The translations under genes and the position numbers were made by a program. Below, piece after piece: positions 24,105 to 60,223 of a stretch of DNA of 64,000 bases; position 1 is the first letter of the stretch, and every line of letters begins with the position of its first letter. Where the stretch lies: positions 744,001-808,000 of the forward strand of contig NZ_AP019720.1 of NCBI RefSeq assembly GCF_006739205.1, in the 5' to 3' direction. This DNA comes from Streptococcus mutans (GTDB lineage Bacteria; Bacillota; Bacilli; Lactobacillales; Streptococcaceae). The notes under the pieces were generated by a model. That model made no database searches. It saw only the letters and a list, made by a program, of their open reading frames with translations, and was not told where the DNA came from.

Positions 24105-24116
24105 TCGGAGGAAAAG

Positions 24117-24818: not shown

Positions 24819-24819
24819 T

Positions 24820-27957: not shown

Positions 27958-27989
27958 ATTTGAAGGGGAGGGTGTCTAGATTGGGTGTC

Positions 27990-28395: not shown

Positions 28396-28400
28396 AACAA

Positions 28401-28441
28401 AAATGAAATTTGAGCAATATATTTCATTTTTATGTTATAAT
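28401..28441 (+). promoter_or_regulatory. Promoter and candidate autoregulatory operator of the TetR gene
   Basis: TGTTATAAT (28433-28441) is an extended -10 box. Just upstream, AAATGAAAT (28401-28409) and ATTTCATTT (28421-28429) form a perfect 9-bp dyad with an 11-bp spacer that overlaps the -35 region. The core TGAAAT...ATTTCA also occurs in the dyad at 23443-23476. Confidence 0.65.
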
Positions 28442-28457
28442 GATGGCGAGGTATTCA

Positions 28458-29788: not shown

Positions 29789-29878
29789 ATGAGCATTATG
29801 GCACTAGTCCCATAAAATGGGACAGTAGAAAAACACTTCTGTTGAAATCTAGTAAACTAGAAACAGGAGTGTTTTATT

Positions 29879-30169: not shown

Positions 30170-30183
30170 ATCTTATCAAGCCA

Positions 30184-30990: not shown

Positions 30991-31028
30991 ACAGAAGGTC
31001 GGCCGCCTATGGACTTGTCAAGAAAAAG

Positions 31029-33072: not shown

Positions 33073-33092
33073 AGACCTAATCGGAGGAAAAG

Positions 33093-33794: not shown

Positions 33795-33795
33795 T

Positions 33796-36141: not shown

Positions 36142-36853
36142 AACAGAGAAGGTTGTCCTATTTTGTATTCCTCATGCTGGAGGTAATAGTAGTAGCTTTA
36201 ATAAATGGAGAGGATACATGCCCGATAATATTATTTTTAAACCAATTGAATTAAGTGGTAGAGGAAAGCGTTTGAACGAAAAATTAGATGCTAGTTTTGA
36301 AGATATGATTGATGATGTTTTTAATTCTATCAAAAAAATAATGGTTAATTTTGATATGGATTATTATATTTTTGGTCATAGTATGGGAGCTTGGATAGTG
36401 TTAGAATTACTTTATTATTTTAAAGAATACCATTTACCTTATCCAAAAGGTGTAATATTTTCTGGGAATATCCCACCTTGTTTTTATCATAAGTCTACCC
36501 CACCACTTCATTTGTTACCAGATAAAATATTTCTAGAAGAAGTCTCAAAATTGGGAGGGATACCTGGAAAAATAATAAAAGAAAAACAATTTGTAGAATA
36601 TTTTGTTCCTATTATAAAAAATGATTTTAAATTGATAGAGAACTATTATTTTCAACAGAAGCAGGAAAAGTTTCCTGTAAAAAGTCTGATTTGTAGTGGT
36701 AAAGATGATAAATTTCGGGTAAAGGATTTGGTACAATGGGAAAATTACTTTATTGATAAGTGCTCAATATCTTTATTTAAAGGTGGCCATTTTTACATCG
36801 ATGACAATATTGCTAGTCTTTGTAATCAAATAAAAGATTTTATTTATATGTAG
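36131..36853 (+). CDS. bacT: Type II thioesterase of the assembly line
   Basis: This 240-residue alpha/beta hydrolase of the GrsT/SrfD type has CIPHAGGNSSSF near the N-terminus, catalytic Ser in FGHSMGAW (about residue 84), a likely Asp in SGKDDKF and the His in KGGHFYID. It would clear wrongly loaded carrier domains. The GTG start at 36131 lies seven bases after GAGGGG inside the permease gene and overlaps its stop. The symbol is the legacy UA159 name, from memory and gene order. Confidence 0.88.
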   Translation: MLNKTEKVVLFCIPHAGGNSSSFNKWRGYMPDNIIFKPIELSGRGKRLNEKLDASFEDMIDDVFNSIKKIMVNFDMDYYIFGHSMGAWIVLELLYYFKEYHLPYPKGVIFSGNIPPCFYHKSTPPLHLLPDKIFLEEVSKLGGIPGKIIKEKQFVEYFVPIIKNDFKLIENYYFQQKQEKFPVKSLICSGKDDKFRVKDLVQWENYFIDKCSISLFKGGHFYIDDNIASLCNQIKDFIYM

Positions 36854-40003: not shown

Positions 40004-43000
40004 ATGTCAGAAACAATGAAAGAAGATATTGCTATTATAGGAATGTCAATAAAAGTTGCACAAGCAGAAAACTTGGAAGAATTCTGGGATCTATTGAAAG
40101 AAGGAAAAGAAACTATATCTTCTTTCCCACAACAAAGAAGTAAAGATGTACATATATTGGAGAATAATAATATGAAATTTGAAGTGGGTTCTTATTTAGA
40201 AGATATTGCTTCTTTTGATCCTTATTTTTTTAATATAACTCCTAGAGAAGCAGAATTGATGAGCCCTATTCAAAGATTAACTTTGGAAAAATGTCTAGAA
40301 GCTCTAGATGATGCGGGTATTAGCAAAAAGACTTTAAATGATTCTAAAACAGGAATTTATCTCGGCCATATTGGAGATTTAGAGGGCTATAAATATAAAA
40401 ACTGGGTTAACAAATTTTATAATAACGATCCAATGGCCATTCCAGGAAATTTGAATTCAATTATTCCTAGTCGAATATCGTATGTCCTCAATTTAAAAGG
40501 TCCAGCTGTTTTAATTGATACAGCATGTTCTTCTTCACTCGTAGCGATTAGTGAAGCGTGTAAGAGCATCACCAATAAAGAATGCGATATGGCTATTGCT
40601 GGGGGAATTCGCATCTCTTTTTGTCCAGAAACAAGTTCAGAAAAATTAGGAATAGAATCTAGCAATAGGCAGACTAGGCCATTTGATTCTGAAGCAGATG
40701 GTACAGTCCTTGGTGAAGGAGTAGGAATTGTCGTTTTAAAACGATTGGCAGATGCAATAAAAGATGAAGATCACATCTATTCGGTAATAAAAGGAGTAAA
40801 TGTAAACCAAGACGGCTCATCTGCAGGAATTACTGCACCAAATGGTAAAGCACAGGTGGATTTACTGACAGAATTATGGAAAAAGTATGATATTAACCCA
40901 CAAGATATTGATTATATTGAAGCACATGGAACAGGAACAAAGCTTGGAGATCCTATCGAAATAAAAGCATTAACTCAAGCAGTATCTAAATTTACACGTA
41001 GGAAACAATTTTGTGGTATTGGATCAGTAAAATCAAATATTGGTCATTTATTTGAAGCCGCAGGTGTTATTTCAGTAATTAAAACAGCCTTAATGATTGA
41101 GAAACAGCATTTAGTTCCTTCAATTAACTTTTCAAGACCAAATAGAAATATTTCGTTTGTCAATAGCCCATTTTATTTAGTAAATGAATTTCAAAAGTGG
41201 GATGTAGAAAAAAATAAATTGAGAACAGCTGGGGTTAGCTCTTTTGGTTTTTCAGGTACGAATTGTCATATTATTCTACAAGAATTTTATCCTCCAGAAA
41301 ATTTTTCCGATACTTCCAATACACATCAATCTGAACTGTGTTTTTGTTTTTCTAATCCAACAAAAAAGGGTTTAATTGCTTCATTAGAAGCGATGCACCA
41401 ATTTTTACTCTTAAATAAAAAGATTAATTTAGAAAAATTATCGTTAAATCTTCTGTATAGAAAAAGTCATTATAAGAATCGGTTGGTAATCATTTCAGAA
41501 AATAAAGTGGAAAAACTTATTGAGAAAATTAATTTTACAATTAATAATTTGATTACTAAAAATAATGATACTTTTGTAAAAGATGAAAAAATATTTTTTT
41601 CATCAGAAGTTGGAAATAAAGCTTTAGAAGAAAAAGTGTTGACAGATTTGGAAAATTTGGCCACTAACTTTTGTAAAGGAATAGAGTTTGAAAAAAGAGT
41701 TCCAAAGTTAGTTCCAATGCCTTCAATCAAATTTTCAAAAAGCAAATTTTGGATTAACGCTGAAAACCGAAAAAATATGAGTCTTATTGTTGATGAAAAA
41801 GACAGTCGAAAAACATTAGAGATTATCATACAAAATACTTTTGGATATACAGATGTTAATTATCATGAAAGTTTTTTAGATCTAGGAATTGATTCTATTG
41901 GAATGATGAAAATCATTAATGAAGTTTCGGAATACTTTTCAAAACAATTAACTATAAGAGATCTTTATAAGTATAATACTATAAATGATTTGTCGGAATT
42001 TTTAAACTCTTCTAATGAATCCTCGAAGTTAAATAAAGAAAGTATTTCTAAGATTAAAAAAAATGATTTAAATGAATACACTACTTCCCCTCAACAAAAA
42101 AGAATGTACATTCACCAAATAAGATATCCAGAAAGTACTTCTAATAATGTGACTGCTCTATTGGAAATGAAAGGTAATATTCAGAGGGAAAATCTTGAAG
42201 AATCCATAAGAAAAGTTTTACAGAATCATGAAATTTTTCAAACAGTCTTCATGAATCACAATGAAATTAAGCAAAAAATTTTACCAAAAGAATCAGTAAA
42301 TTTTTCATTAGAAACGATTTATTTAAATGATCCTAAGACAGAAGTTACCAATTTAATTGAGCCTTTTAAGTTATCTGATTTGCCTTTATTTCGAATTTAT
42401 CACTTAGTATCTCTCTTGGATGCCTCAGAATATTTATTTATTGATTTTCATCATATTATTTGTGATGTTACTTCAATGGATATTTTTGTTAGAGAATTAA
42501 TTACTGCTTATGAAGGAGGAGAAGCAGACCATTTCGATACAGAATATAAAGACTATGCACAGTGGTTAGATGATCATTTATTAAATACCATTTCTTATAA
42601 AAATCAAGAAAATTATTGGAAAAAAGAATTTATTGATTATACCTCCTATAATAATAGAGAAAGAATAAGTGAACGAGCTCAACAAAGGGAGGTAATCTTT
42701 GAAGCAGAGAAATATCAAAAAATCAAGACATTTTGCCAGAAAAATAGAATAACAGAGCATGTATTTTTGAATACAATGTTTGCATTGACATTGTATTATC
42801 TGGAGGAGCAAAATGATCAAATAATTGGGAATCCGGTCAGTGGTCGAGTGTCAACAAGTGTTGATCATGTTATTGGAATTTTTACCAATACTATTGCAAC
42901 ACGAACAAGAATTACAAAAGAAGATTCAATTATTCACTTACTGAAGCATACTCAAAGCAAAATGCTTGATTATTTAGATAATCAGGATTATCAGATTAAT

Positions 43001-43357
43001 GATTTTGTTTCAGAAGTAAGAGATAAAAATGGAAACAGAATAAATATCAGTAAAATTTTTGCATTTCAAATTTTACCTAAAATAGTAATTTCTGATGGTG
43101 AGTTTATAGATATACCAATAAAAAATATAGAATCGAATTTTGAACTTGCTTTAGTTGCCTCACTAATTGGTGAGCAATTAGCTTTTAGAATAAAATATTT
43201 AATTTCTATTTATGATGAAAGCGATATTACTTTGCTATTTGAAACTTTTAATTCATTTATCGATGAGTCAATAAAAAATCCTGAATTGAAAATTTATCAA
43301 TTGAAAGAAAAGTTTCAAAAGCAAGAAACAAAAGAAATAGCACAATTTGATTTTTAA
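40004..43357 (+). CDS. Hybrid PKS/NRPS protein: KS-ACP-C
   Basis: This 1117-residue protein begins with a ketosynthase (about residues 8-430) with Cys in DTACSSSLVA, His in EAHGTGTKLGD and His in SNIGHLFEAAG. After a linker comes a carrier domain (FLDLGIDSIGMMK, Ser about 629), then a condensation domain (about 690-1110) starting SPQQKRMYIHQ. There are no KR, DH or AT domains, so the extended chain should keep its beta-keto group. The C domain active motif reads HHIICDV, with Val in place of the Gly of HHxxxDG. It would add one malonyl unit to the starter acyl chain and pass the product to the first amino acid. Confidence 0.9.
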   Translation: MSETMKEDIAIIGMSIKVAQAENLEEFWDLLKEGKETISSFPQQRSKDVHILENNNMKFEVGSYLEDIASFDPYFFNITPREAELMSPIQRLTLEKCLEALDDAGISKKTLNDSKTGIYLGHIGDLEGYKYKNWVNKFYNNDPMAIPGNLNSIIPSRISYVLNLKGPAVLIDTACSSSLVAISEACKSITNKECDMAIAGGIRISFCPETSSEKLGIESSNRQTRPFDSEADGTVLGEGVGIVVLKRLADAIKDEDHIYSVIKGVNVNQDGSSAGITAPNGKAQVDLLTELWKKYDINPQDIDYIEAHGTGTKLGDPIEIKALTQAVSKFTRRKQFCGIGSVKSNIGHLFEAAGVISVIKTALMIEKQHLVPSINFSRPNRNISFVNSPFYLVNEFQKWDVEKNKLRTAGVSSFGFSGTNCHIILQEFYPPENFSDTSNTHQSELCFCFSNPTKKGLIASLEAMHQFLLLNKKINLEKLSLNLLYRKSHYKNRLVIISENKVEKLIEKINFTINNLITKNNDTFVKDEKIFFSSEVGNKALEEKVLTDLENLATNFCKGIEFEKRVPKLVPMPSIKFSKSKFWINAENRKNMSLIVDEKDSRKTLEIIIQNTFGYTDVNYHESFLDLGIDSIGMMKIINEVSEYFSKQLTIRDLYKYNTINDLSEFLNSSNESSKLNKESISKIKKNDLNEYTTSPQQKRMYIHQIRYPESTSNNVTALLEMKGNIQRENLEESIRKVLQNHEIFQTVFMNHNEIKQKILPKESVNFSLETIYLNDPKTEVTNLIEPFKLSDLPLFRIYHLVSLLDASEYLFIDFHHIICDVTSMDIFVRELITAYEGGEADHFDTEYKDYAQWLDDHLLNTISYKNQENYWKKEFIDYTSYNNRERISERAQQREVIFEAEKYQKIKTFCQKNRITEHVFLNTMFALTLYYLEEQNDQIIGNPVSGRVSTSVDHVIGIFTNTIATRTRITKEDSIIHLLKHTQSKMLDYLDNQDYQINDFVSEVRDKNGNRINISKIFAFQILPKIVISDGEFIDIPIKNIESNFELALVASLIGEQLAFRIKYLISIYDESDITLLFETFNSFIDESIKNPELKIYQLKEKFQKQETKEIAQFDF

Positions 43358-43402: not shown

Positions 43403-46400
43403 ATGGAAATTTTATTTGAGCAAAATGAAACGAGAAATATTGAAAAAATAACAAAAAAAGATCCTTTATTGACGCAGATTCTTTTTTCATCGCTCATAAA
43501 AATGATAACTTTTAAAAGATATGGAGAAATAGGATTTGATACGGGTATTGTAATGGACAGTCAGAAGCTGGTACTTTTAGAGTCGGAAAACATGGATCCA
43601 CAACAAACCCTTAAACAAATTATTTTGGAAGAAAGGGAGATTATACTAAAGAATAATCAATCATTTCTTAGGAAAAATGTTACAAATGATATTTTTCAAA
43701 GGTATATCATTGATTTTAGAAAAAAGAAAGCTAGTTCTATTAATGATGAACATAGCAAGAATAATGTATATTTAAATTTTTATTATCAATTAGACATGCT
43801 GAATTGTAGTATAACTAATTCAGAAAATGAAGAGAATGGTCTTTCTGAAATGTTTCATTTGATAAAAACAGTTATATCTGAACTCCCTCAAAATATTAAT
43901 CAGAAGATTAAGGATATTGCTTTAATCACAAATGAAGAAAAAGAAAGTATTTTAAAGATATCAAGGGGCAAAGAATTATCAATTGAAGCTCCAACCTTTT
44001 TAAAGTTATTTCAAAAAGTTACTGATAGATTAAAAAACAAAGTAGCTATTTCGTCAGATGATTGGTATTTAACTTATGAACAACTTAATCAGGAATCAGA
44101 GAAACTTTCTCTTTATTTAAGTAAACTCTTTGAGCCAAAAAGTATTGTTCCCTTGGTGATGGATAATAGTTCAGAAATGTTTATTGTTATTTTTGCCATA
44201 TTGAAAAGTGGTTTTGCTTTCTCACCCATTTCTTTAGATTATCCTCCAGAAAGAATAGAGCATATTATAAAAGAAACTCATTTAAATAGTGTTATTGTTC
44301 CAGAAGAAGCTAATCTTCAAATTTCTAAGGAAATAAAACAATATGTAGCTAAAGATTTGTTAAATAAAGCTCCAGTTGAAGTAGATCAATTTTCAAATGC
44401 TGTAAATGTAAGAGGAGACGACATTGCTTATGTTATTTTTACATCAGGGACAACAGGAACACCTAAAGGAGTAAAAGTTTCTCATCAATCATTGATGAAT
44501 CTCATTACTTGGCATAATGATAATTTCTCAATAACTTCTGAAACTATAGCTGCTAAATACGCTGGTGTGGCTTTTGATGCAAGTATTTGGGAATTATTTC
44601 CTTATTTATCAATTGGAGCAAAAGTTTATGTTGTTTCAGAAAAAGATCGTTTTGATGTTAAAAAATTAAATCAAAAATTTATTGAAAATAAGGTTAGTAT
44701 TGCTTTTTTACCCACAGTAGTCTTTGAAAAATTTAGCAAGGTGCAAAATCCATATTTGAAAATTCTTTTAACCGGTGCAGAAAAGCTACACTATTTTTCA
44801 GAACAAGCTTACGAACAATATAATAATTACGGTCCAACAGAGTATACTGTTGTAGCCACATCTTTCAAGTTAGAAAAACACATGGATAATATACCAATTG
44901 GTAAACCTATCGCCAATACAACTGCTTTAGTAATGTCAAATGATCGTCACTTTCTCCCCATTGGTTTTAAAGGTGAACTATATTTGGGAGGAGATAGTTT
45001 ATCTTCTGGTTATTTAAATGATTCTAAAAAGACAAAAAATAGTTTTATTGAATTAGAACAAATTATGGGACAAGTTTTTTACAAAACAGGAGACTTAGTT
45101 GCATATACTGATAGTGGTGAGTTACTTTATTATGGAAGAATTGATAATCAAATTAAAATTAATGGATATAGAATAGAACTTCAGGATATCGAAAAAAATA
45201 TATTAGAAATAATAGGACAGGATTCAGATTGTTCTGTTGTTGTTATTCCAGTCTCTATTAATGGCTTAATATCTCTTCATGCATTTTATGAAGGAGTTAC
45301 GGGATTTGACTCTAATCCTAATCAAGTCTTAAAACAACTTACAAATAAATTACCTTCATATATGGTTCCTAGTACTATTGAGTCTTTGTCACAATTTCCT
45401 TTAACTTCTAACGGAAAGGTTGATCGAAAATATTTGGAAAAAATAGTACTAAATAAATCGACATCTGTTAAAGAAATTAATAATGATAATCCTTTATTAG
45501 TTAAAGTAATGAAAATTATTACTGAGATTTTAAAAGGTAGACAAATTAATCCTGATGAAGATTTTTTCCAAATGGGTGGAAATTCTTTAACTGCTATTGA
45601 ATTAGCCAATAAATTACAAGAAGAACTAAATAAAAAAGTAACAATTGATGATATATTTAAATTTAGAAATGCTATTAACCTTGTTGATAATTTAACAAAT
45701 AGGGAAAACTTAAAACCGCTAGAAACTAGTATCCAATCTTCGGAGGAGATTTCTTATGAATCAAGTCCAAGTCAAAAAGCAATTTTTATTGAACAAAAGA
45801 TTGATGAGAAGTCTTTGGCATATAATATGCCAATTGTTTACAAAATTAATGGAGAAATAGATTTTGAAAAATTGGAATCTAGTTTGGACAAAGTAGTAAA
45901 AAATAATGAATTATTAAGATCTCACTTTTATTTAAAAGATGAGCGTGTTATGGTAAAAACCCCTAAGGTAAAAGATTATTATCATGTTATGGAAAGGAAA
46001 GAGCTTAGTGAAAAATCTTTTGATTTAACAAAGGAATTTAAAAAATTTGTACGCCCATTTAATCTTGAAAAAGATGTTCTTATCAGAGCGAAAATAATAA
46101 AAACTTCGTCTCAAAAATATCTCTTTTTAGATAGCCATCATATTTCTTTTGATGGGGGAAGCTTGAATCCCTTTATTAATGATTTTAAAAAGGCATATGC
46201 AGGAGTAGAACTTGAAAGAAAAGCTTCGTATAGTCAATATGCTTTACAAACACTATCTCCTCATTTCTTAAAAGCAAGTCATTCACATTTTGAAAAGGAA
46301 TTTGGAACACTTGTGGAGCCACTAAAATTATCTGATTTTGGAACTATTGATCATCAAAAAAAGGCTGGTGTGAGTTTCGATAGTGAATTTTCTTATAAGA

Positions 46401-48340
46401 TAAGAAATATCGCTTTGAAAAATAAGGTAACAGTATTTAATCTGTTGTTTTCAATTGTTGGATATTTACTCAGTTGTTTTTCAAATCAAAAAGATATTTG
46501 TATAGGTGTTCCAGTAACAAATAGAAATAGAAGTCAGTATAAAAATATTATTGGTATGTTTGTTAATACTCTACCTGTTAGATTGAATTATGAAAATTTA
46601 CATACAGTTGAGGAAATGAATAAATATGTAAATAATCAATTTATCGAAGCTTTAAAATATAAAGAATTTTCTTTAGAAGAAATTATTAAAATTAGTAGAG
46701 ACAAAACAGAAAATGATATTAGCCAATTATTTAATGTACTATTTGTAATGAATGAAATTGAAGATTTTAATTTTTCTATTGATAATACAACTTTCGAGAA
46801 AATGTCTGCTGATAATAAAGATGTGAAATACGATTTGTTATTTGAAGTTTTAGATAATACAAAGGATAATACTTTTTCAATTTCTTTAGAATATGATAAT
46901 AAAAAATATTCGAACCAATTAGCAAATAGACTATTACAAAGTTTGCAAAAGATTTTGATGGAAGTAGTTGACAAGCAAAAAAATAATTTATCGGATATTA
47001 AAATTATTTCTGAAATAGAGGAACAGACACTACAATCATTTCTAACGTGGAAGCAATTTACAGGAAAACAGCAAAAACTCCATGAACCCTTTGAAAATTT
47101 AGTCAAGCAATTTCCTAATAAGATTGTTGTTAAAGATAAAAATACTTCAATGACTACAACCGAACTTATGCAGAAATCAAATATTGTTGGTAATTTTTTA
47201 CAAAGACAAGGAGTGAATAACAATAAAAAAGTTGCTATTATTGTTAATAAATCAGTAAATATGATGGTAACTATACTAGGTGTTCTAAAATCTGGTGCAG
47301 CTTATGTTCCTATTGAACCGTCTTTACCAGAGGAGAGAGTGAAATACATTTTAGATGACTCCTGTTGTGACTTCATTATTAGTGAGGAACCATTTTATAA
47401 TGGAAAGATTAATTCTGAAACAATATCAAATATTCTAAATGAAGAACCAGATATTTCTAAAGTTGAATCAGACAGTACCTATAAAGATCTGTGTTATATC
47501 ATCTATACCTCTGGTTCGACAGGAGATCCTAAAGGAGTTATGCTAACCCATGAAGCTGTTATGAATCGATTGCTATGGATGCAAAATGCTTATCCAATTA
47601 CAAAGAATGATATAATTTTGCAAAAAACTTCATTTGGTTTTGATGTATCTATTTGGGAATTATTTGGCTGGACTTTTGAAGGTGCAGTATTATATTTTTT
47701 AGAAAATGGAGAGGAAAAAGATCCTCAAAGGATTATTGAGTTAATAAATAGCCAAAATATTTCAAAACTTCATTTTGTTCCATCAATGTTAAATGTATTT
47801 CTTGAATTTTGTGAGAGAGAAAACAAAGATTCTTTAAAAAGTCTTAGCATAGTTTTTTCGAGTGGAGAAGCACTGACAAAAGAACAAGTAATCAAGTTTT
47901 ATAGTATTTTTGACAACGACAAGCCTCAATTAATTAATTTATATGGCCCAACTGAAACAGCAATTGAAGTAACTTATTTTGATTGTAGTAATCTTGATTA
48001 TAAATCTGAAGATGTTCCAATTGGAGAACCTTTGGATAATGTTGAAGCTTATGTTCTTAATGATAAAAAACAAAAATGTCCTATCGGTGTTGTTGGGGAA
48101 CTGTATATAGGAGGAATACAGGTAGCTCAAGGATATATTAACAAAGAAGATGCTACAAAGAAATCTTTTGTGAGACTACCGAAAATTTCAAATTCAAGAT
48201 TATATGCTACAGGTGATTTAGTAAAATGGACTTCAGAAGGGAAGTTAATATTCATTGGTCGTTCTGATGATCAAGTTAAAATTCGAGGTTATCGAATTGA
48301 ATTGGGTGAAATTGAAAAATATTTGAAGAAAGTAAGCTAA
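43403..48340 (+). CDS. bacA: NRPS, first part: (C-lobe remnant)-A1-T-C-A2 (cut by an in-frame stop)
   Basis: The 1645-residue frame starts with about 190 residues like the C-terminal lobe of a condensation domain, without HHxxxDG. A1 follows (FTSGTTGTPKG about 346, NYGPTE about 475); its specificity residues read D-A-W-F-L-G-N-V-V, the classic Leu code. Next are a carrier (MGGNSLTA), a C domain (HHISFDGG about 912) and A2 (YTSGSTGDPKG about 1368), whose residues D-V-W-H-F-S-L-I-E are Ser-like. A2 reaches core A8 (RGYRIELGEIE), then meets TAA at 48338, and the A2 end continues in the same frame from 48341. The two parts together span 2,724 sense codons of one gene. The symbol is the legacy UA159 name. 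Confidence 0.88.
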   Translation: MEILFEQNETRNIEKITKKDPLLTQILFSSLIKMITFKRYGEIGFDTGIVMDSQKLVLLESENMDPQQTLKQIILEEREIILKNNQSFLRKNVTNDIFQRYIIDFRKKKASSINDEHSKNNVYLNFYYQLDMLNCSITNSENEENGLSEMFHLIKTVISELPQNINQKIKDIALITNEEKESILKISRGKELSIEAPTFLKLFQKVTDRLKNKVAISSDDWYLTYEQLNQESEKLSLYLSKLFEPKSIVPLVMDNSSEMFIVIFAILKSGFAFSPISLDYPPERIEHIIKETHLNSVIVPEEANLQISKEIKQYVAKDLLNKAPVEVDQFSNAVNVRGDDIAYVIFTSGTTGTPKGVKVSHQSLMNLITWHNDNFSITSETIAAKYAGVAFDASIWELFPYLSIGAKVYVVSEKDRFDVKKLNQKFIENKVSIAFLPTVVFEKFSKVQNPYLKILLTGAEKLHYFSEQAYEQYNNYGPTEYTVVATSFKLEKHMDNIPIGKPIANTTALVMSNDRHFLPIGFKGELYLGGDSLSSGYLNDSKKTKNSFIELEQIMGQVFYKTGDLVAYTDSGELLYYGRIDNQIKINGYRIELQDIEKNILEIIGQDSDCSVVVIPVSINGLISLHAFYEGVTGFDSNPNQVLKQLTNKLPSYMVPSTIESLSQFPLTSNGKVDRKYLEKIVLNKSTSVKEINNDNPLLVKVMKIITEILKGRQINPDEDFFQMGGNSLTAIELANKLQEELNKKVTIDDIFKFRNAINLVDNLTNRENLKPLETSIQSSEEISYESSPSQKAIFIEQKIDEKSLAYNMPIVYKINGEIDFEKLESSLDKVVKNNELLRSHFYLKDERVMVKTPKVKDYYHVMERKELSEKSFDLTKEFKKFVRPFNLEKDVLIRAKIIKTSSQKYLFLDSHHISFDGGSLNPFINDFKKAYAGVELERKASYSQYALQTLSPHFLKASHSHFEKEFGTLVEPLKLSDFGTIDHQKKAGVSFDSEFSYKIRNIALKNKVTVFNLLFSIVGYLLSCFSNQKDICIGVPVTNRNRSQYKNIIGMFVNTLPVRLNYENLHTVEEMNKYVNNQFIEALKYKEFSLEEIIKISRDKTENDISQLFNVLFVMNEIEDFNFSIDNTTFEKMSADNKDVKYDLLFEVLDNTKDNTFSISLEYDNKKYSNQLANRLLQSLQKILMEVVDKQKNNLSDIKIISEIEEQTLQSFLTWKQFTGKQQKLHEPFENLVKQFPNKIVVKDKNTSMTTTELMQKSNIVGNFLQRQGVNNNKKVAIIVNKSVNMMVTILGVLKSGAAYVPIEPSLPEERVKYILDDSCCDFIISEEPFYNGKINSETISNILNEEPDISKVESDSTYKDLCYIIYTSGSTGDPKGVMLTHEAVMNRLLWMQNAYPITKNDIILQKTSFGFDVSIWELFGWTFEGAVLYFLENGEEKDPQRIIELINSQNISKLHFVPSMLNVFLEFCERENKDSLKSLSIVFSSGEALTKEQVIKFYSIFDNDKPQLINLYGPTETAIEVTYFDCSNLDYKSEDVPIGEPLDNVEAYVLNDKKQKCPIGVVGELYIGGIQVAQGYINKEDATKKSFVRLPKISNSRLYATGDLVKWTSEGKLIFIGRSDDQVKIRGYRIELGEIEKYLKKVS
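48338..48340 (+). other. In-frame TAA splitting the NRPS gene
   Basis: The TAA lies in the same frame as the coding sequence on both sides (43403 and 48350 share a frame). The residues before it (GEIEKYLKKVS) and after it (KNCLVSLQNKLS) read straight through as an A-domain C-terminal subdomain. Siblings in this cluster seem one residue longer here, so a 3-base deletion is as possible as a substitution. Confidence 0.85.
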
Positions 48341-48349
48341 AAGAACTGC

Positions 48350-51300
48350 TTGGTAAGCCTTCAAAATAAACTTTCAAAAAATAATAAGAGCCTCATTGCT
48401 TATATTGAAAGTTCAACAACTATTGATGAAAGCAAGATCAAAGAAGAACTTAAGACTTTATTACCTCAATATATGGTTCCAAGTCACATTTATATTGTCC
48501 CAGAATTTCCTATAAATAAAAGTGGTAAAGTGGATAGGAAGTTACTTGATAGTATGTATTCGTCAAAACATATTGCTCCTAAGGAAGGTCTTATTAAATC
48601 AAGTAATTTAACAGAAGATATTAAATCTGTTTGGAGTAATATATTAGATTATTCCATTGATTCTTTTTCAGAAGATGATAATTTTTTCTCTCTTGGAGGA
48701 GACTCTATTAAAGCTATTAGTATGGCTTCGAAACTCATTTCCAAAGGGTATAAAGTTTCAGTTAAAGAAATTTTGAAAAATCCAACGATAGCTCAACTTA
48801 CAAAAATAGTAGTTAAGTCTAATCAAATCGAAGAAGATTCGGAACTTGATAATAGTGTCCCATTAACTCCGATTAGTCAATGGTTTTGGAAACAAAATTT
48901 TCAAGTGCGAACTCATTGGAATCAAGCTGTAGTACTTGTGAGTAAAGATAAAATAAATGATGAATTTTTAAGAATAGCTATAGAAAAAATCATTGATGAG
49001 CATACTATATTAAGGAGTCAACTTGACAATAATTCGTTATCAATTGACAATCAAAAAGACGCTCAACGATTTTATGATTATCAAGAAATTGATATTTGTG
49101 GATGGGATGATAAAGCAAAGATCATTAATAGCTATGTATATAATATTTTATCTAAATCTTCAAAGTTAATAAATATTGTTAAATTCATTTGTGATGATTG
49201 TGAAAGAATCGTGCTTTCAATTCATCATCTTTTGATAGATACAATTTCGTGGAAAATACTTATAGAAGATTTTTGTAGTTATTATGGACAACTTAGAAAT
49301 GGACAGTCATTAAATTCAAGTTTTAAAACAACTTCATTTATTACTTGGGCTAATAGAATAAACACGTTATCTGTTAAGTTTTCTGAAAGTAATATGGAAA
49401 AGAAGTATTGGGATAATATTGTGCAAACGCCTGTCGATTTAATTAATCAAGATGGTGTTATTAATCCAGGAAGTATCAAGGATAGAAAACATTCTAGAAT
49501 AAAATTGGAAAAAGAAATCAGCTCTCAACTATCAGATATATCAGTATCAAATTCCCATGTTACCCAGGAGCATATTCTTTTGACAAGTGTTTTAATGGCT
49601 TTAAAGAAAAGTTATTCTATTTCAAATATTCCTATTTTAATGGAAGGATATGGTCGTGAAGAGTACCTTACTCAAACCACTTTAGCGAGAAGTATAGGAT
49701 GGTTTACTAATACTTATCCGCTTGTTTTTAAAGTCAAGGATGATGTTTTACAAACATTAATTCAAGTTAAAGATATCATTAATAGGGTGCCTCATAATGG
49801 TATTGGCTATGGATTACTCCATTTGGTAAATAGTAATTTACAAGATTTAGATCCTGAAATTAGTTTTAACTTTTTGGGAGAAATAAGTAGTGAATCAAGT
49901 ACACAATTCATGACTTTGGACAATATTGAGTTAGATTGTTTAATAAATAAGTCAAATAGTAATCCATATCTTATTGAATTTTCAGTATTTTTCTTAAAGG
50001 GAGAACTATTCGTAGATGTTTATTTTGACAGCACGTTAATTAGTCAAGAAGATGTGGAAATAATGAATCAGAATTTTGTGCAAACAATAAATGAGCTGAT
50101 AAATTGTTCAGAAGATATATCAACAATGCGAAGTATTTCTGATGTTACAAATGAAACATTTAAATATGAAAGTAACAATTTACCTATTGTTAATGATAAA
50201 AATATTGATAAAATTAGAAAAACATTACCAATGCAAAGTAATATTTTGTTTCTTGAACAATTTCAAAAAAATAGAAATATTTATCATGAACAATTTAAAG
50301 TAGACTTTAAAGGTAGACTGAATAAAAAAATTTTTGATAAAGCTGTGCAATTTGTAGTAGATCAGTACGAAGCTCTAAGGACTAGTTTCGATTTAACTAC
50401 ATTTGGTGAGCCTGCTCAAATTATTAAACAAAATAATACAATTAGTATAGACGCTTATACATTTGAAAGTCCAAGACAGGATAGTGAAGCTGCTGTTAAG
50501 AAATTAGAAAATGAATTCTTAGATATCCCATTTGATACTCAGGAATCAGATCTGTTTAGAATTACTATTTTAGAATTTAAAGACCAAGAAGTCAGTTTAA
50601 TTTTTGACTATCACCATATAATTTTGGACGGTTGGTCAATGTTGATTGTTTTACGTAAAATATTCACCTGTTATACTAAGCTTTTGAAGGATGCAACCTA
50701 TATAAATGAAGAAGAAAACATAAATATAGATGATTACTTTGATTATAAAGATTTATTTGAAACTGAATCAGCTAAAAGATATTGGAAAAATTTCTTAGAA
50801 AACATTGGTGAGAATTTAAATTTAGAAAATTACTTTGATAGAAATCTTGAGGGAAAAACGATTGAACATAATATTGGTGAATATAGATTCTCAATATCAA
50901 AACAACAAGATAAACAAATCAGACAATTTTGTGAAAATTTAAACTGTACTACAAATGATTTTGCTCATTTAATTTGGTCAACCATATTGTATAAATATTT
51001 AAAGAGTCAATCACAAGTATTTTTCTATACTGTTTCAGGTCGAGATGGAGATATTAATATTGAAAATGAAGTTGGACTTTTTATAAATACTATTCCTCAA
51101 GTGACTAATATCAATGATGATAGTAGTATATCAAGTATAGTCGAAAGTATTCATTTAAATATTTCTAATGCATTTGGCTATTCACAATTGCCTCTAAGTG
51201 AGATTTTACAACAATCACAAGTTTCTCATGATCAGATTAATACACTTTTGGTTTATGAAAATTTTCCTATCCATAAAGATGATTTTATAGCAGAATTGTC

Positions 51301-51577
51301 AGATTCTCAATTGGAATTTCAAACTTATAAAGCAACTGAGGCTACAACGTATGACTTGACTCTTATCTTTTCTGAGGAAGAAGAGAAGATTTCTATTCGT
51401 ATACTCTATAATCCTCATAAATATAGTAATCAGTATATTTCGATTCTAGGAAAAAATATCCAAGGAATTATTGATGATTTAGTCACTAAAAATTATTTCC
51501 GTGAGATTACTCTTCCAGATAATACTTTCAATGAGGCTTTACAGTCGGTAGAAGATAAACTAGACTTTAATTTTTAA
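48350..51577 (+). CDS. NRPS, second part: (A2 end)-T-E-C
   Basis: The frame resumes after the stop. It holds the missing A2 end with core A10 (NKSGKVDRKLL), a carrier (LGGDSIKA, Ser about 118 counted from 48350), an epimerisation domain (HHLLIDTISWK, EGYGREEY, FNFLGE, about 170-590) and a C domain (LPMQSNILFLEQF, HHIILDGWS about 755). The E domain would invert the residue activated by A2, and the final C should accept a D-residue donor. A TTG at 48350 is the nearest start and ATG 48473 the next; neither has a good ribosome site, so restart looks poor. If not expressed, the assembly line is broken here. Confidence 0.85.
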   Translation: MVSLQNKLSKNNKSLIAYIESSTTIDESKIKEELKTLLPQYMVPSHIYIVPEFPINKSGKVDRKLLDSMYSSKHIAPKEGLIKSSNLTEDIKSVWSNILDYSIDSFSEDDNFFSLGGDSIKAISMASKLISKGYKVSVKEILKNPTIAQLTKIVVKSNQIEEDSELDNSVPLTPISQWFWKQNFQVRTHWNQAVVLVSKDKINDEFLRIAIEKIIDEHTILRSQLDNNSLSIDNQKDAQRFYDYQEIDICGWDDKAKIINSYVYNILSKSSKLINIVKFICDDCERIVLSIHHLLIDTISWKILIEDFCSYYGQLRNGQSLNSSFKTTSFITWANRINTLSVKFSESNMEKKYWDNIVQTPVDLINQDGVINPGSIKDRKHSRIKLEKEISSQLSDISVSNSHVTQEHILLTSVLMALKKSYSISNIPILMEGYGREEYLTQTTLARSIGWFTNTYPLVFKVKDDVLQTLIQVKDIINRVPHNGIGYGLLHLVNSNLQDLDPEISFNFLGEISSESSTQFMTLDNIELDCLINKSNSNPYLIEFSVFFLKGELFVDVYFDSTLISQEDVEIMNQNFVQTINELINCSEDISTMRSISDVTNETFKYESNNLPIVNDKNIDKIRKTLPMQSNILFLEQFQKNRNIYHEQFKVDFKGRLNKKIFDKAVQFVVDQYEALRTSFDLTTFGEPAQIIKQNNTISIDAYTFESPRQDSEAAVKKLENEFLDIPFDTQESDLFRITILEFKDQEVSLIFDYHHIILDGWSMLIVLRKIFTCYTKLLKDATYINEEENINIDDYFDYKDLFETESAKRYWKNFLENIGENLNLENYFDRNLEGKTIEHNIGEYRFSISKQQDKQIRQFCENLNCTTNDFAHLIWSTILYKYLKSQSQVFFYTVSGRDGDINIENEVGLFINTIPQVTNINDDSSISSIVESIHLNISNAFGYSQLPLSEILQQSQVSHDQINTLLVYENFPIHKDDFIAELSDSQLEFQTYKATEATTYDLTLIFSEEEEKISIRILYNPHKYSNQYISILGKNIQGIIDDLVTKNYFREITLPDNTFNEALQSVEDKLDFNF

Positions 51578-51595: not shown

Positions 51596-54500
51596 ATGAA
51601 TACCCCAAATCATTTGATAACAGATGTTTCGACTGATTTAGTGAAAATTTTAAGAGATATATATGGAGAAAATGTAGAAACTGTAACATGTAAATCTATT
51701 AATTTGGATGAAGACTTAATGCAGGAAATAAAAAATATGACTAAAGGAAGCAAACCTGCTGAGGCTGTTCTATTCTTTACAATACTGCAATTATTAACTT
51801 GGAAATTTTCTAGTAAAACAAATTTCACGCTACCTTTTCCGTATAAAGTATTTGATTTTAATTCGGACGACATCTTATTGTACATCAATTGTCAAATTGA
51901 GGAAGAAAAGACAATGAAAGAATTTCTTAATGAGACAAAATATAGAATTTTGGAGGCTTATAAGAAATCCCTGTCAGTAAAATCTGTAGTTCAAAATGAA
52001 TTAGATTTACCAATTAGTTTTGATCTTCAAGAAGAGAGTATGTTGAAAAGAGATCAAGTTTCTTTACACTTAGAAGAGTTATATTTTATCTATAATTCTC
52101 AAAGTGAGGGAACTGTCCAAATCTACTTTTCTCCACAATCTTATTCAGAACGCTTAATAGAATCTTTGCTAAATACTATTAAAAGTATTTATAATACAAT
52201 AGTTCAAAATGTAGAAATAAAGATTCAAGATATATTAATAGAAACTGTTCAGAATAAGGTATTGGAGGTTGTTGAAACTAGCTCTCTATATACATTATTA
52301 AATCAACAATTTATAGAAAACAAAGAGAAAATTGGATTAGTAGATTCAGATAAACAACTTACATATCATGATATTGAGAAAGTTAGTAGTAATCTTGCAG
52401 ATATGCTTATTTCAAAAGGTGTTAAAGAAGGGGATAGAGTTGCAGTATATGCTACTCGATCAGTTGATGCTGTCATTATGATTTTAGGAATATATATAGC
52501 AGGTGCAACCTATATTCCTTTAGATATCGAAGCTCCAACAAAAAGAAACCAACAAATACTAGAGGATGCTCGACCTTCAATTATTATAACAGATGAGAAA
52601 AACCACTTGTTTGGTGAAGAAAGTTCATTGAAACACATGATTTATTCACAAAAGAATTTTGAAAAAATTGAATTTGAATTGCCTAAAAAGAGACGACGAG
52701 ATGTGAACTCACTTCTTTATGTCATTTATACTTCTGGAACAACAGGAAAACCTAAGGGTGTTCTGTTTAGAGATAAAGCTATGGAAAATTTGGTTAATTT
52801 TCAACAGCAAAAATGTCAGTATTCTCTTTCTAAAACAGTCTCACAATTTGCCTCGTTAGCTTTTGATGTGGCATCACAAGAAATTTGGTCAACATTGTGT
52901 TCAGGTGGATGTCTAGTTATTGTTAATGAAGAAAGCAAAAAAGATACGCTAAAATTTTTGGAGTTTTTTAACAGAAATAAGATCCAGACTAGTTTTTTAC
53001 CTACTTCTTTTTTTAAAGTTCTAATGTCTGATACAATCGGCTTGCAAGAATTTTTGTCAAACGTTGATAATATCATTGTTGCTGGTGAGGCTCTAACTGT
53101 AAATGAAGAAATAATTACTAATATTAAACAGAATAATGTACATCTATATAATCACTATGGGCCATCTGAAACACATGTTGTCTCAATTGATGAAGTTACA
53201 AATGTAGATGTTACAATAGGAAAACCTATCCAAAATACCCAATTTCATATTTTAGATGAAAAAGAAAACGAGTTACCTTTTGGAGCGCCTGGAAATTTAT
53301 ATATCGAAGGAGTACCTTTAGCTGATGGTTATTTAAATAATGAAGAAAAGACAACTGAGTCTTTTAAGTTAATTTATAAAAGTGGAGTTCCTATTCGAAT
53401 GTATAATACAGGAGATGTCGTTAGACAGTTGGGAAATTCAAAATATGAATATCTTAGACGAACAGATAAACAGTTAAAAATTAGGGGGTATAGAGTAGAA
53501 TTACAGGAAGTGGAAAATACTATCTTAAATATTGACGGAGTTGATTTAGCTCAAGTAATTCCATTTTTACAAAATAAAAATACCATAATGCTAGCATTTT
53601 ATAGTGGTTCACTTTCAGAGAATGACTTAAAGGAAAAACTATCAAAAATTTTACCAAATTATATGATTCCTTCCATCGTGAAAAAATATACTCAGATGCC
53701 TCTTAACAGAAATGGAAAAATAGATAGTCAAGAATTACTTCTACGATATCAAGACTCTTTGCGAAATACAACAATTTCTAGCCCTACCTTTTCCGATAAA
53801 ATGATGGAAAAAATTTATAATGTTTGGAAAGCAGTTTTAGGAGAGCACAATATAGGAACTGACATTTCATTTTTTGAATTAGGTGGGAATTCCATTAATG
53901 CAATGCTTATTTGTACTCAGCTAAGTAGGGAATTTTCTATATCATTAAATGTTTTAGAATTATTTGAAAATGATACGATTGAAAAATTATATCAATATAT
54001 AAATGATTCTGTTTCTAAACAGGAAAAATTAGCGTCTATCCCTCATCTTGAAGAATCTCAAGTTTATAGACTGTCTCCTGAACAAGAACGAATGTATTTT
54101 TTGCAACAGTTTGACTTAAAATCAACTTTGTATAATATTCCTTTTATTTTTAAAATTAAAGGCTTTTTGGATAGTAATAAATTGGCAATTGCTTTTCATA
54201 AATTAGTATCAACTAATGATATTTTCCGAACAACTTATCATGTTGTTGGAAATGAAGTTGTTCAAACTGTGAATAAAACAGCAAATTATAACATTGCTCT
54301 AGAAGATTTATCAGATTTAGGTAGCTTAGAAGAGGCTGAGAAGAGTTTCATACGTCCTTTTGATTTATCTAAAGATTTGTTGATAAGAATGGGTTTATAT
54401 TCTGAACAAAACTCCCAATATTTATTTATTGATATGCATCATATTAGTTCAGATGGGTTCTCAATGAATTTAATTATGAATAAATTGAGTAACTTTTATT

Positions 54501-55285
54501 TAGGAGAAGATGATAAACAGGTATCAAGGATCACTTATGGGGATTATGCTGAATATACTAAAACAGATGAATTTGAAAAAATTTTGCAGGAACAGGAAGA
54601 ATATTGGCGAAAAGAATTTGCCAATTATAGTCATTCTAATCAATTACCACACTCTCAACAAAGCTATTCAGGTGATATACAAGAATTTTCTTTTGAAGAG
54701 GGAGATTTGTTAAGAATTGATGAATTTGCTAAAAGACTTAATATAACTCGGTATGTCTTTCTTTTTTCCGTTTTCGCAAAGTTAATAAATACACTTGAAT
54801 TTCCTGTTGATATAATTGGGACACCTGTTTCAGGAAGAAATTTATCAGAGTTGCAAAATGTTGTGGGTTTATTTGTGAATACGGTTCCAATTAGAATTCC
54901 GAAAGAAGATGATTTCAATAGCTACTTAATGGAGTTTAATAATAAAATTAAAATGGCTCTTCTTAATCAAAACTATCCTTTTGATAGATTGATTCGAATA
55001 CTTCGAAGTTCTGGTCAGCTAAATTCAAGTGGTTTATTTAATTTTATGTTTGCCTATCAGATTTATGAATCTCCATTAAAACTTGGAGATATTGAACTAG
55101 TAGAACAAAAGAAAAATATATTAATTGAAAAATATGACTTAACAGCCAATGTGGTAGATTTTGGAAATAATATAAAAATTCAAATCAGTTTTAATACCGA
55201 TAAGTACAGCCATGAGGACATCAAACAGTTGTTACAAAAATATGTTGAGTTTATAAATAACATTTTAGATGGGGAGGGGATATGA
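51596..55285 (+). CDS. grs: NRPS: (C-lobe remnant)-A3-T-C, predicted Pro
   Basis: This 1229-residue protein has an N-terminal stretch of about 215 residues like a condensation C-lobe, without HHxxxDG. A3 follows (YTSGTTGKPKG about 378, HYGPSETHVV about 520), then a carrier (LGGNSINA, Ser about 766) and a C domain (SPEQERMYFLQQF, HHISSDGFS about 947). The A3 specificity residues read D-V-Q-F-I-A-H-V-V, close to the known Pro code D-V-Q-L-I-A-H-V-V. GAGAGG precedes the ATG. The stop overlaps the next ATG by four bases. The symbol is the legacy UA159 name, from memory. Confidence 0.88.
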   Translation: MNTPNHLITDVSTDLVKILRDIYGENVETVTCKSINLDEDLMQEIKNMTKGSKPAEAVLFFTILQLLTWKFSSKTNFTLPFPYKVFDFNSDDILLYINCQIEEEKTMKEFLNETKYRILEAYKKSLSVKSVVQNELDLPISFDLQEESMLKRDQVSLHLEELYFIYNSQSEGTVQIYFSPQSYSERLIESLLNTIKSIYNTIVQNVEIKIQDILIETVQNKVLEVVETSSLYTLLNQQFIENKEKIGLVDSDKQLTYHDIEKVSSNLADMLISKGVKEGDRVAVYATRSVDAVIMILGIYIAGATYIPLDIEAPTKRNQQILEDARPSIIITDEKNHLFGEESSLKHMIYSQKNFEKIEFELPKKRRRDVNSLLYVIYTSGTTGKPKGVLFRDKAMENLVNFQQQKCQYSLSKTVSQFASLAFDVASQEIWSTLCSGGCLVIVNEESKKDTLKFLEFFNRNKIQTSFLPTSFFKVLMSDTIGLQEFLSNVDNIIVAGEALTVNEEIITNIKQNNVHLYNHYGPSETHVVSIDEVTNVDVTIGKPIQNTQFHILDEKENELPFGAPGNLYIEGVPLADGYLNNEEKTTESFKLIYKSGVPIRMYNTGDVVRQLGNSKYEYLRRTDKQLKIRGYRVELQEVENTILNIDGVDLAQVIPFLQNKNTIMLAFYSGSLSENDLKEKLSKILPNYMIPSIVKKYTQMPLNRNGKIDSQELLLRYQDSLRNTTISSPTFSDKMMEKIYNVWKAVLGEHNIGTDISFFELGGNSINAMLICTQLSREFSISLNVLELFENDTIEKLYQYINDSVSKQEKLASIPHLEESQVYRLSPEQERMYFLQQFDLKSTLYNIPFIFKIKGFLDSNKLAIAFHKLVSTNDIFRTTYHVVGNEVVQTVNKTANYNIALEDLSDLGSLEEAEKSFIRPFDLSKDLLIRMGLYSEQNSQYLFIDMHHISSDGFSMNLIMNKLSNFYLGEDDKQVSRITYGDYAEYTKTDEFEKILQEQEEYWRKEFANYSHSNQLPHSQQSYSGDIQEFSFEEGDLLRIDEFAKRLNITRYVFLFSVFAKLINTLEFPVDIIGTPVSGRNLSELQNVVGLFVNTVPIRIPKEDDFNSYLMEFNNKIKMALLNQNYPFDRLIRILRSSGQLNSSGLFNFMFAYQIYESPLKLGDIELVEQKKNILIEKYDLTANVVDFGNNIKIQISFNTDKYSHEDIKQLLQKYVEFINNILDGEGI

Positions 55286-58200
55286 TGGAGCAGCAAAAGA
55301 AATTTAAAAATAATCAATTTGATTATGATAATTATCTCACTATAATTAATGAGTTCGAAAAACAGGTAGAACGATTTCCAGATAAGATTGCAATTATTCA
55401 TAATGATACAAGAATAACTTATAAGGAGCTTAATATACTAGCAAATAAAGTTGGAAATATTTTAATTTCTTCTGGGGTTGATAATGGTGATAAAGTCGCA
55501 ATTGACATGAAACGAGGAATTTCTTATATTGCTGCAATTTTGGGAATTTTAAAAATAGGAGCTATCTATGTCCCACTAGATTTTGATTTTCCTCAATCAA
55601 GAAAAGAATATATCCTGAACGATTGCCGGTCGAAAATTATTATCACAGAATCAGATATTGAATATAAAAATTATAAAAAAGTAAATTGGAACCAAATTAT
55701 AGAAGGATCTTCCTCAAAGGATTTAGTAACAGATCATTATGTCAAAGAAAGTTTAGATGAAATTGTTTATATTATGTATACTTCTGGGACTACGGGTTTT
55801 CCTAAGGGAGTGCAGGTTGGCGGAAGAGGAATTATTCGTTTGATAAAGGACAATAAAAGCTTAACAATGAAAAATACAGAAGTTATGCTACATGGTTCTT
55901 CTTTAGCATTTGATGCGTCAACATTAGAAATATATGCAGCTCTTTTAAATGGTGCATGCCTATCTATCATTGATAAGGAGGATTTAATTGATAGTCAAAC
56001 ATTAAAAGAAAAGTTGAAAAATGATCATGTCAATCGAGCCTTTTTTACAACCCCTTTATTTAATTCATTGTGTGAGCAAGATCCAAGTGTATTCAATGAG
56101 CTTGAACAAGTAATTATAGGTGGAGATAGAGCATCTAATAAACACCTAAAAATAGTAATGAAGAATAGCAAGAAAACTCAATTTTATAATGGATACGGAC
56201 CAACAGAAAACACTGTTTTTACGACCATGCATAATATTCAATACTCAGAGTTAGAAGGTGATATTCCGATCGGTAAAGCAATTAATGATACTGGAATTCT
56301 TATCGTTAATGAAAATTTTGAAGAAGTAAAAAAAGGGGAAGTTGGAGAATTAGTTGTAACAGGTGGAGGTCTTGCTATTGGTTATCTAAATCAAAAAGAT
56401 GCTTCTCAAGGTTCCTTTATTTCTCTTCCAAATCTAGGGATCAAACGTGCTTATAAAACAGGAGATTATGTTAGAGAAAATAATGATGGGGATCTCATTT
56501 TTATTGGCCGCAGAGATAGTCAAATTAAGTATCGAGGTTTTCGAATAGAACTTAGAGAAATTGAAAGTATTGCAAAAAAGATTGATCATATTAGAGAAGC
56601 TATTTGTCTCCTAATTGGTGAAAAATCTAATTCTAAATTAGTTCTTTTTGCTGAGTCTAATTCTTCTGTGTCAGAAGCTTCTATTATTGAAACACTTCAT
56701 GTTGAGCTTCCAGAATATATGGTGCCCAATGATCTTATTTTGCTAGATAATATGCCATTAAAACTTAATGGGAAAGTTGATTCTGACAAGCTTAAACAAA
56801 TCTATTTGGAAAAAATACAAAGTCAGGTTGAAAAACCTAGCGAAAGTAACACAGAGAGATTTTTCATAGAAATTTTGGAAGATGTGTTAAAAAAGCCAAA
56901 CCTTAATTTAGAGATGAATTTTTTTGAAATTGGTGGACATTCTTTAAATGCAACAATTATATCAACAAGACTATCAGAAGCATTTCATAAAAAAATTTCT
57001 GTCAGAGATGTTATGTTAAATCCAAATTTGAAAGATTTGTTTCATTTGACTAAGGTGACAGAAGATGACGCTGGCTCTAATTTAGAAGTGCTATCAAAAG
57101 CTGATAATTATGATTGTTCTCCTACTCAGTCTAGACTTTTTCTGTTAAACAAGAGCCGAAGTGACACATCTTATAATATTCCATATTTCATTAAGGTAAG
57201 TAGCAATATTGATATGGAACAACTAAAAAAGGCTATTTGGAAAGAACTAAAAGAAAATGAAATTTTAAGAACAATTTATACATTTAACAATTCCAAAATT
57301 GTCCAAAAAGTTCTTCCGTTTGAGAAAAAACTACTTAATATTTCTGTAGAATATGAACCAATAATTGATTTTGAGTATTTGCAAAAGTATTTGATTCAAC
57401 CATTTGATTTGGAAAAATCGATTCCCTTTAGGGCTTCTATCATAAAATCCAATAGTGATATCATCCTTTTTCTAGACATTCATCATATTGCCATAGATGG
57501 TTTTTCATTAAATCAACTCTTAAAAAATATTGAAAAAAACTATTTTGAAATTAAATTTACGCGTCCTAAATTTACTTATAAAGATTACTCTAATTGGATA
57601 AATAAACAGATTAGTAATGGTAAGTATATGCAAAAGAAGCAGTATTGGCAAGAACAGCTTAAAGGTTATCAGGAGAATATATTTTTAGGAATTGAAAAAA
57701 CTATAAAACCCAATTCTAAACGAACGATTTACTATAATAGAGAAATATCTTCACAATTATATGAACAATTGAGAGATTATATAGTTACAAATAATATTAG
57801 TCTAAATATACTTTTTATGACTGCACTTTACATTCTTATAGCTAAATATTCCTCAATTAATGATATAGTTATTGGTTCCCCTGTTTCAGGAAAAGTATTA
57901 GCGGATTTGGAAGAAATGATTGGTTCTTTTATTAATAGCTTACCAATTAGATATAAAGTAGATCCATCAAAAACTATCTTGGAAACGATTGAGGATGTAA
58001 AAAAGCAAGTGATGGATGCATTAGAAAATCAAGAATATCCGATTGATTCGATAGTTAGTGATAAGAACAAAGAAAATACGGAAATTGCTTCTTTGTTTGA
58101 TATTATGTTTGTTATGCAGACCAATTTCAAGCAAGGTGAACAAGAAAAATCAAATCAGATATTTTTAGACTATCAAGAGATTCCGATTGATTCTAAAATG

Positions 58201-60171: not shown

Positions 60172-60223
60172 AAGTACTAACTATCATTAAAACCTTTGAA
60201 TGAAGAAAGGGATTATATACGAT

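What the first reader, a model, noticed from the sequence alone, without database searches (positions are those of the whole stretch)
48338..48340. In-frame stop codon cuts the second adenylation domain of the NRPS
A2 is intact up to core A8 in the upstream ORF, and its A10 Lys-containing end (NKSGKVDRKLL) opens the next ORF in the same frame. Without that subdomain an A domain cannot adenylate properly, so this strain may not make the lipopeptide unless the stop is read through, the halves associate, or it is a sequencing error. Sibling A domains in the cluster suggest one residue is missing here, compatible with a 3-base deletion turning TAT GTA into TAA. All other domains look intact, so the loss, if real, is recent.
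Basis: partly seen in the sequence, partly recalled or inferred. Interest (0 to 1): 0.75.

Follow-up and report, generated by a model that had tools for sequence, protein, structure and literature searches.

The report
Nonsense mutation in mutanobactin synthetase gene
In this Streptococcus mutans genome one large enzyme gene of the known mutanobactin pathway is cut by a premature stop codon, so this strain probably cannot make that lipopeptide; it looks like an ordinary, recent loss of a gene that is whole elsewhere.

Summary
TAA at 48338-48340 is in frame and splits one NRPS gene into 1645 codons before it and 1078 after it, inside the C-terminal subdomain of the second A domain. By span and neighbours the gene is SMU_1342 of the UA159-type mutanobactin (mub) cluster. 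Intact copies exist: database protein P0001 has 2724 aa, and UA159 SMU_1342 is listed at 8,175 bp, exactly 43403-51577. The window matches P0001 at 1645 of 1645 residues before the stop and 1077 of 1078 after it. So no residue is missing: the proposed 3-base deletion is wrong, and this is a nonsense change at one codon.

The 12 other mub genes with published sizes have the same length or differ by 3 to 69 bp, multiples of three. None of 65 tRNA genes found reads a stop codon. Restart codons just after the stop have weak ribosome-binding contexts. Best reading: a recent loss-of-function allele and no mutanobactin. A sequencing error cannot be excluded without reads, and frequency among strains could not be counted. 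Ordinary in mechanism; low interest.

The parts
43403..48340 (+). Upstream piece of the SMU_1342-type NRPS (inferred name mubA): A1-T1-C2-A2 core, ending at the premature stop; 1645 aa
   Evidence: ORF; two AMP-binding stretches, one Condensation, one PP-binding; 0 of 1645 residues differ from intact P0001
47090..48136 (+). A2 core (AMP-binding, PF00501), complete
   Evidence: profile positions 1-383 of 384; aligned to solved NRPS A domains up to the last few residues
48257..48301 (+). A8 motif region at the start of the A2 C-terminal subdomain
   Evidence: residues 1619-1633; motif name recalled
48338..48340 (+). Premature stop codon TAA
48341..51577 (+). Downstream piece in the same frame: rest of A2 subdomain, T2, E2, C3; 1078 codons plus the natural stop
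   Evidence: PP-binding, two Condensation stretches, TIGR01720 at residues 471-608; 1 of 1078 residues differs from intact P0001
48392..48529 (+). Rest of the A2 C-terminal subdomain (AMP-binding_C, PF13193 positions 29-76 of 76)
   Evidence: 22.4 bits, below the cut-off of 24.5; in intact P0001 the best stretch covers nearly the same positions (30-76), so the low score alone is no sign of damage
48515..48547 (+). A10-type motif NKSGKVDRKLL with the catalytic lysine (role recalled)
   Evidence: sequence, read in frame
48350..48352 (+). TTG, first in-frame restart codon after the stop; weak ribosome-binding context
   Evidence: anti-SD pairing -1.1 kcal/mol, weaker than the median (-1.4) of 407 start-like codons inside the gene
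48554..48556 (+). ATG that would start a T2-E2-C3 fragment; best-scoring of the five in-frame candidates tested, still mediocre
   Evidence: -4.8 kcal/mol, reached by 20% of 407 interior start-like codons
48617..48805 (+). T2 carrier domain
   Evidence: PF00550
48854..50164 (+). E2, probable epimerization domain (Condensation match plus TIGR01720)
50225..51487 (+). C3 condensation domain
40004..43357 (+). PKS gene of the cluster (3,354 bp, as UA159 SMU_1343c), open
51596..55285 (+). Next NRPS gene (3,690 bp, as UA159 SMU_1341c), open
55282..60171 (+). Next NRPS gene (4,890 bp; UA159 SMU_1340 is 4,887), open
60200..64000 (+). Last NRPS gene (SMU_1339 type, with reductase-like domain); runs past the window, complete in L021 as 1478 aa

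Best explanation
A recent nonsense change at one codon of the SMU_1342-type NRPS gene of the mutanobactin cluster makes a loss-of-function allele. Translation ends 12 residues after the A8 motif, inside the small C-terminal subdomain of the second A domain. Module 2 therefore lacks, on the same chain, its A10 lysine, carrier and epimerization domains, and the following C domain, so the line should stall after module 1 and make no mutanobactin. Shown: the stop, the frame, intact homologs of the same length, near-identity on both sides. Inferred: loss of product.
For: (stop and frame; 0 of 1645 and 1 of 1078 residues differ from intact P0001). (P0001 and P0002, both 2724 aa). (PMC8112672 Table 2 passage: SMU_1342 is 8,175 bp, the exact span here). 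against that table: of 13 genes SMU_1334 to SMU_1346, 9 spans are identical, SMU_1342 over its whole span among them, and 4 differ by 3, 3, 9 and 69 bp; 65 tRNA genes, none with a stop anticodon; the pieces align to consecutive parts of single A domains in the solved LgrA chain; weak restart contexts. (review PMC8210680, section 4 read): deleting the first NRPS gene in UA159 eliminated production.
Against: No reads, so an assembly error is possible. No chemistry or expression data for this strain. The review does not tie 'first NRPS gene' to SMU_1342 by tag. It also names UA140 and MT4653, but mub primer sequences printed for UA140 (PMC5440470) have no match here, so UA140's locus seems to differ and its data may not transfer. 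Two working-looking mub genes also have weak start contexts, so low-level restart cannot be excluded.
Confidence: 0.8

Rival explanations
1. The stop is a sequencing or assembly error, and the gene is whole in the living strain.
For: The window is otherwise almost identical to intact P0001, and the other mub genes compared are open, as expected if only a base call is wrong. No reads could be checked.
Against: The difference is a change at one codon without a shift of length; long-read errors are mostly indels in base runs (recalled; the platform is unknown). Genome is one contig, completeness 100, contamination 0.06. A weak outside lead: an RNA-seq table for strain ATCC 25175 lists mubH (RS03610), mubB (RS03620), mubC and mubD, but mubA and the tag RS03615 occur nowhere in the main text (PMC11933110, passages). 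This may mean a pseudogene there, or only that the gene was not selected; that the window is that strain is a guess.
Confidence: 0.13
2. The two pieces are both made (restart at TTG 48350 or ATG 48554) and work together as a split synthetase, or the stop is read through at a useful rate.
For: Both pieces are open and nearly unchanged. No Rho gene was found (two weak matches, 39.7 and 18.6 bits against a cut-off of 509.45), so downstream RNA may persist. A start-like codon lies 10 bases after the stop. Two of eight mub gene starts also score weakly.
Against: The cut lies inside a domain that is one chain in solved NRPSs. Restart contexts are weak. No stop-reading tRNA among 65. Near-identity to an intact homolog shows recency, so conserved pieces are no sign of selection.
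Confidence: 0.04
3. An old, selected gene split shared by many strains.
For: None found; but the members of P0001 cannot be opened, so some may be cut.
Against: 2724-aa homologs P0001 (100% in the region searched) and P0002 (87%), and 2731-aa P0005 (58%). No separate short form of the downstream piece was listed: best identity among the 120 listed of 2279 hits was 34%, though 90% clustering could hide one inside P0001.
Confidence: 0.01
4. A 3-base deletion created the stop.
For: None found.
Against: Codon count equals that of the intact homolog, with no gap on either side; UA159 gene length is identical; A8-A10 spacing varies from 71 to 78 in the 8 spacings measured.
Confidence: 0.01

Closest known systems
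SMU_1342 (BacA1; the inferred mubA) of S. mutans UA159, mutanobactin synthetase in genomic island TnSmu2
   Same: Same gene span (8,175 bp); 12 neighbouring mub genes in order with lengths identical or within 69 bp. UA159 DNA itself was not available for alignment
   Different: Here one codon is a stop, so the protein is cut after residue 1645
Database cluster P0001 (2724 aa, 151 member sequences, source and species not shown)
   Same: Identical at 1645 of 1645 residues before the stop and 1077 of 1078 after it
   Different: P0001 is intact; how many of its 151 members are cut is not shown
Strains that lack the UA159-type mub cluster
   Same: Predicted outcome, no mutanobactin. PMC3751929 (passage) reports TnSmu2 sequence missing in NCTC 11060, AC4446, KK23 and NN2025; PMC9112991 (passage) reports the cluster in about 95 of 244 genomes
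   Different: Here the cluster is present and only one gene is broken

Membership tests
Mutanobactin biosynthetic cluster (mub, TnSmu2) | One loading unit, one PKS module and six NRPS modules with tailoring genes | tested here: met
   AMP ligase with carrier, PKS, 7 Condensation matches (one probably an E domain by TIGR01720), six A domains, terminal reductase-like domain (TIGR01746, 189.7 bits, below cut-off 213.35), PPTase; published layout in PMC5116633 (passages) and PMC8210680
Mutanobactin biosynthetic cluster (mub, TnSmu2) | Gene order and lengths as in UA159 SMU_1334 to SMU_1346 | tested here: met
   13 of 13 matched by place and length; 9 spans identical, 4 differ by 3, 3, 9 and 69 bp; two of the 13 (SMU_1336, SMU_1337c types) were matched by length only, with no domain scan
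Mutanobactin biosynthetic cluster (mub, TnSmu2) | Sequence match to the UA140 mub locus | tested here: not met
   Printed UA140 primer pieces: 4 sought, none in the window at up to 2 or 3 mismatches; 3 of them also absent from L021, 1 also absent from the genome. The match is to the UA159 type
Mutanobactin biosynthetic cluster (mub, TnSmu2) | Production of mutanobactin | not testable with these tools
   Needs LC-MS
NRPS adenylation domain (A2), functional | Core and C-terminal subdomain with the A10 lysine in one chain | tested here: not met
   Stop between A8 and A10
Pseudogene / nonsense allele | In-frame stop absent from intact homologs of the same length | tested here: met
Pseudogene / nonsense allele | Confirmed by independent reads | not testable with these tools
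   No reads held
Stop-codon suppression | A tRNA that reads UAA | tested here: not met
   65 of 65 tRNA genes found have sense anticodons, 150 of 165 candidates were scored, and ARAGORN saw only the 14 stretches taken
Natural split NRPS | Break at a domain boundary and a proper start for the second gene | tested here: not met
   Break lies inside an A domain; weak start contexts

The most novel reading that the evidence does not exclude
Both pieces are made without Rho-dependent polarity and assemble as a naturally split A domain (or module 2 is bypassed), so that the strain makes mutanobactin or a shortened congener from a broken gene.
Probability: 0.03. Interest if true: 0.55.

Novelty: new member of a known kind. 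Interest (0 to 1): 0.15.

Why it matters
A strain that carries the mub cluster but a broken SMU_1342-type gene would be counted as a mutanobactin producer by genome mining while making none. If the strain is a common reference strain (not established here), studies of its biofilm, aerobic growth or Candida interaction should not assume mutanobactin. Mechanistically it is an ordinary nonsense allele.

Tried and rejected
So the frequency of the stop among strains could not be counted, and no codon-level selection test was possible.

Considered that the allele might be favoured in a background with weakened FtsH, since deletion of the mub locus suppresses ftsH lethality in UA159 (PMC8112672, passages). 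[quoted passage not shown] Not pursued further.

A protein search with the downstream piece listed 120 of 2279 hits, none above 34% identity. This shows no separate short form, but is weak evidence because of 90% clustering and length limits.

Tried to identify the strain. PMC11933110 (passages) gives mub gene tags of ATCC 25175, but that assembly is a 10-contig draft (PMC3751929 Table 1 passage), so positions do not identify it. Left as a guess. The species was checked with two comY primer sequences printed in PMC5440470 for S. mutans: each matches exactly in 1 of 144 genus genomes, the window's own, about 1.1 kb apart. The UA140 mub primers of the same paper do not match; I read this as a different locus type in UA140.

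Searches for a printed report of this stop: TnSmu2, mutanobactin, premature stop; one listed; mutanobactin with type-strain names; 20 of 29 listed; mubA, mubB; 1 paper, which I could not open; mubA, mutanobactin, pseudogene; 15 of 110 listed, none with S. mutans in its title. None of the listings shows such a report. The one paper holding all three terms (PMC3628994) uses 'premature stop' for another gene (passages); the one mention of NCTC 10449 in PMC8210680 is in its reference list. Most listed papers were not opened. One search (nonsense mutations and split A domains in general) listed 3 papers that I did not open.

No structure prediction was run; it was not needed for the verdict.

Full report
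What was checked. The TAA at 48338-48340 is in the frame of the ORF that starts at 43403, and the same frame is open again from 48341 to 51577. The pieces are 1645 and 1078 codons long. The first holds A1-T1-C2-A2 core; the second holds T2, a probable E domain (TIGR01720, 76.7 bits against a cut-off of 74.2) and C3. The stop comes 12 residues after the A8 motif, near the start of the small C-terminal subdomain of A2. In the solved LgrA chain the two pieces align to consecutive parts of the same A domains (residues 1230-1637 and 1659-1801, or 206-606 and 622-773), so the cut is inside a domain. The remnant after the stop matches AMP-binding_C at 22.4 bits, below the cut-off of 24.5. In intact P0001 the best stretch of that family covers nearly the same positions, so this score is no evidence of damage by itself.

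What gene it is. The genes from 36131 on, and those beyond the window in L021, follow the mutanobactin operon of S. mutans UA159. Of the 13 genes SMU_1334 to SMU_1346 whose sizes are given in Table 2 of PMC8112672 (passage), 9 have identical spans here, counting the broken gene over its whole span, and 4 differ by 3, 3, 9 and 69 bp, which start-codon choice could explain. The species is supported by two S. mutans comY primer sequences found in 1 of 144 genus genomes, this one. The name mubA is my inference from the order mubH, (one tag), mubB in PMC11933110 (passage). Primer pieces printed for the UA140 mub locus do not match here, so UA140 seems to carry something different.

Comparison with intact copies. 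The protein search with residues 1150-1645 of the first piece (the best 120 of 7987 hits listed) gave P0001 (2724 aa, 151 members, 100% identity), P0002 (2724 aa, 6 members, 87%) and P0005 (2731 aa, 3 members, 58%). Compared piece by piece without gaps, the window differs from P0001 at 0 of 1645 residues before the stop and at 1 of 1078 after it. P0001 and P0002 differ at 277 of the first 1645 when compared without gaps. So the gene here is nearly identical to an intact allele and has the same number of codons; the intact homolog has a sense codon where this genome has the stop. The tool shows no source for P0001 and not how many of its 151 members are intact.

Could the cell get round the stop? 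Infernal found 65 tRNA genes in the genome (150 of 165 candidates scored). ARAGORN, run on 14 stretches around them, named 65, none with an anticodon for a stop codon. The first in-frame restart codon, TTG 48350, pairs with the anti-Shine-Dalgarno at -1.1 kcal/mol, worse than the median of 407 start-like codons inside the gene (-1.4). GTG 48530 scores -3.9 and ATG 48554 scores -4.8, the latter reached by 20% of those. Six of the eight mub gene starts tested lie between -5.0 and -11.2; two (38781 and 60200) are weak, at -2.2 and +0.7, so a weak score does not exclude translation. No Rho gene was found: the profile's two weak matches (39.7 and 18.6 bits) lie far below the cut-off of 509.45, while 8 of 14 control genomes exceed it. 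Loss of downstream mRNA by Rho is therefore not expected, and the later mub genes may be expressed without use. RNA-seq of strain ATCC 25175 lists mubB, mubC, mubD and mubH among regulated genes (PMC11933110, passage), which shows expression in that strain, not in this one.

Expected effect. In the published scheme (review PMC8210680, section 4 read) a decanoyl starter and one malonyl unit are followed by six NRPS modules and reductive release by MubD. Here module 2 lacks a complete A domain in one chain and has its T, E and next C domain on a separate piece that is probably made poorly or not at all. The line should stall after module 1. [quoted passage not shown] By analogy with the mub deletions reported there, one would expect no mutanobactin, weaker aerobic growth and poorer biofilm maturation in air. 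These are inferences.

How sure. The sequence facts are firm. That the stop exists in the living strain is likely but unproven without reads: the single-codon change without an indel and the complete assembly (one contig, completeness 100, contamination 0.06) argue for it, while near-identity to an intact allele is what an error would also give. Frequency could not be measured: the collections searched gave no second S. mutans copy. The island is variable: PMC3751929 (passage) reports its sequence missing from four strains, and PMC9112991 (passage) reports the cluster in about 95 of 244 genomes.

Verdict. A nonsense allele of a known gene in a known cluster; ordinary in mechanism and useful mainly as a warning for genome mining and strain choice. 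I found no report of it in the listings.

Noticed in passing
24097-27167 and 33073-36143: A 3,071-bp stretch holding an ABC ATPase and a 781-aa FtsX-type permease is present twice, identical base for base, as direct repeats about 9 kb apart; recombination between them could delete the DNA in between.
   Followed up: partly
17293-17829, minus strand: A 178-aa ORF matches only the C-terminal half of glycerophosphodiester phosphodiesterase (GDPD profile positions 125-242 of 244), so it looks like a truncated gene.
   Followed up: partly
20678-22299 and 27536-32000: Transposase and integrase ORFs and fragments of several types (HTH_28, rve, IS200-like, HTH_21) lie upstream of and between the two permease copies.
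   Followed up: no
L021:301-4737 (window 60200 onward): The last NRPS gene is 4,437 bp here against 4,368 bp listed for UA159 SMU_1339, and its start as called has no ribosome-binding pairing (+0.7 kcal/mol), so the true start may lie 69 bases further in.
   Followed up: no
whole genome G000: No termination factor Rho gene by profile TIGR00767; the two weak matches lie close together at 608-612 kb and may be ATP synthase subunits, which is a guess.
   Followed up: no
window, L021 and genome G000: Primer pieces printed for the mub locus of strain UA140 (PMC5440470) have no match here, which suggests that UA140 carries a different cluster under the same name.
   Followed up: partly
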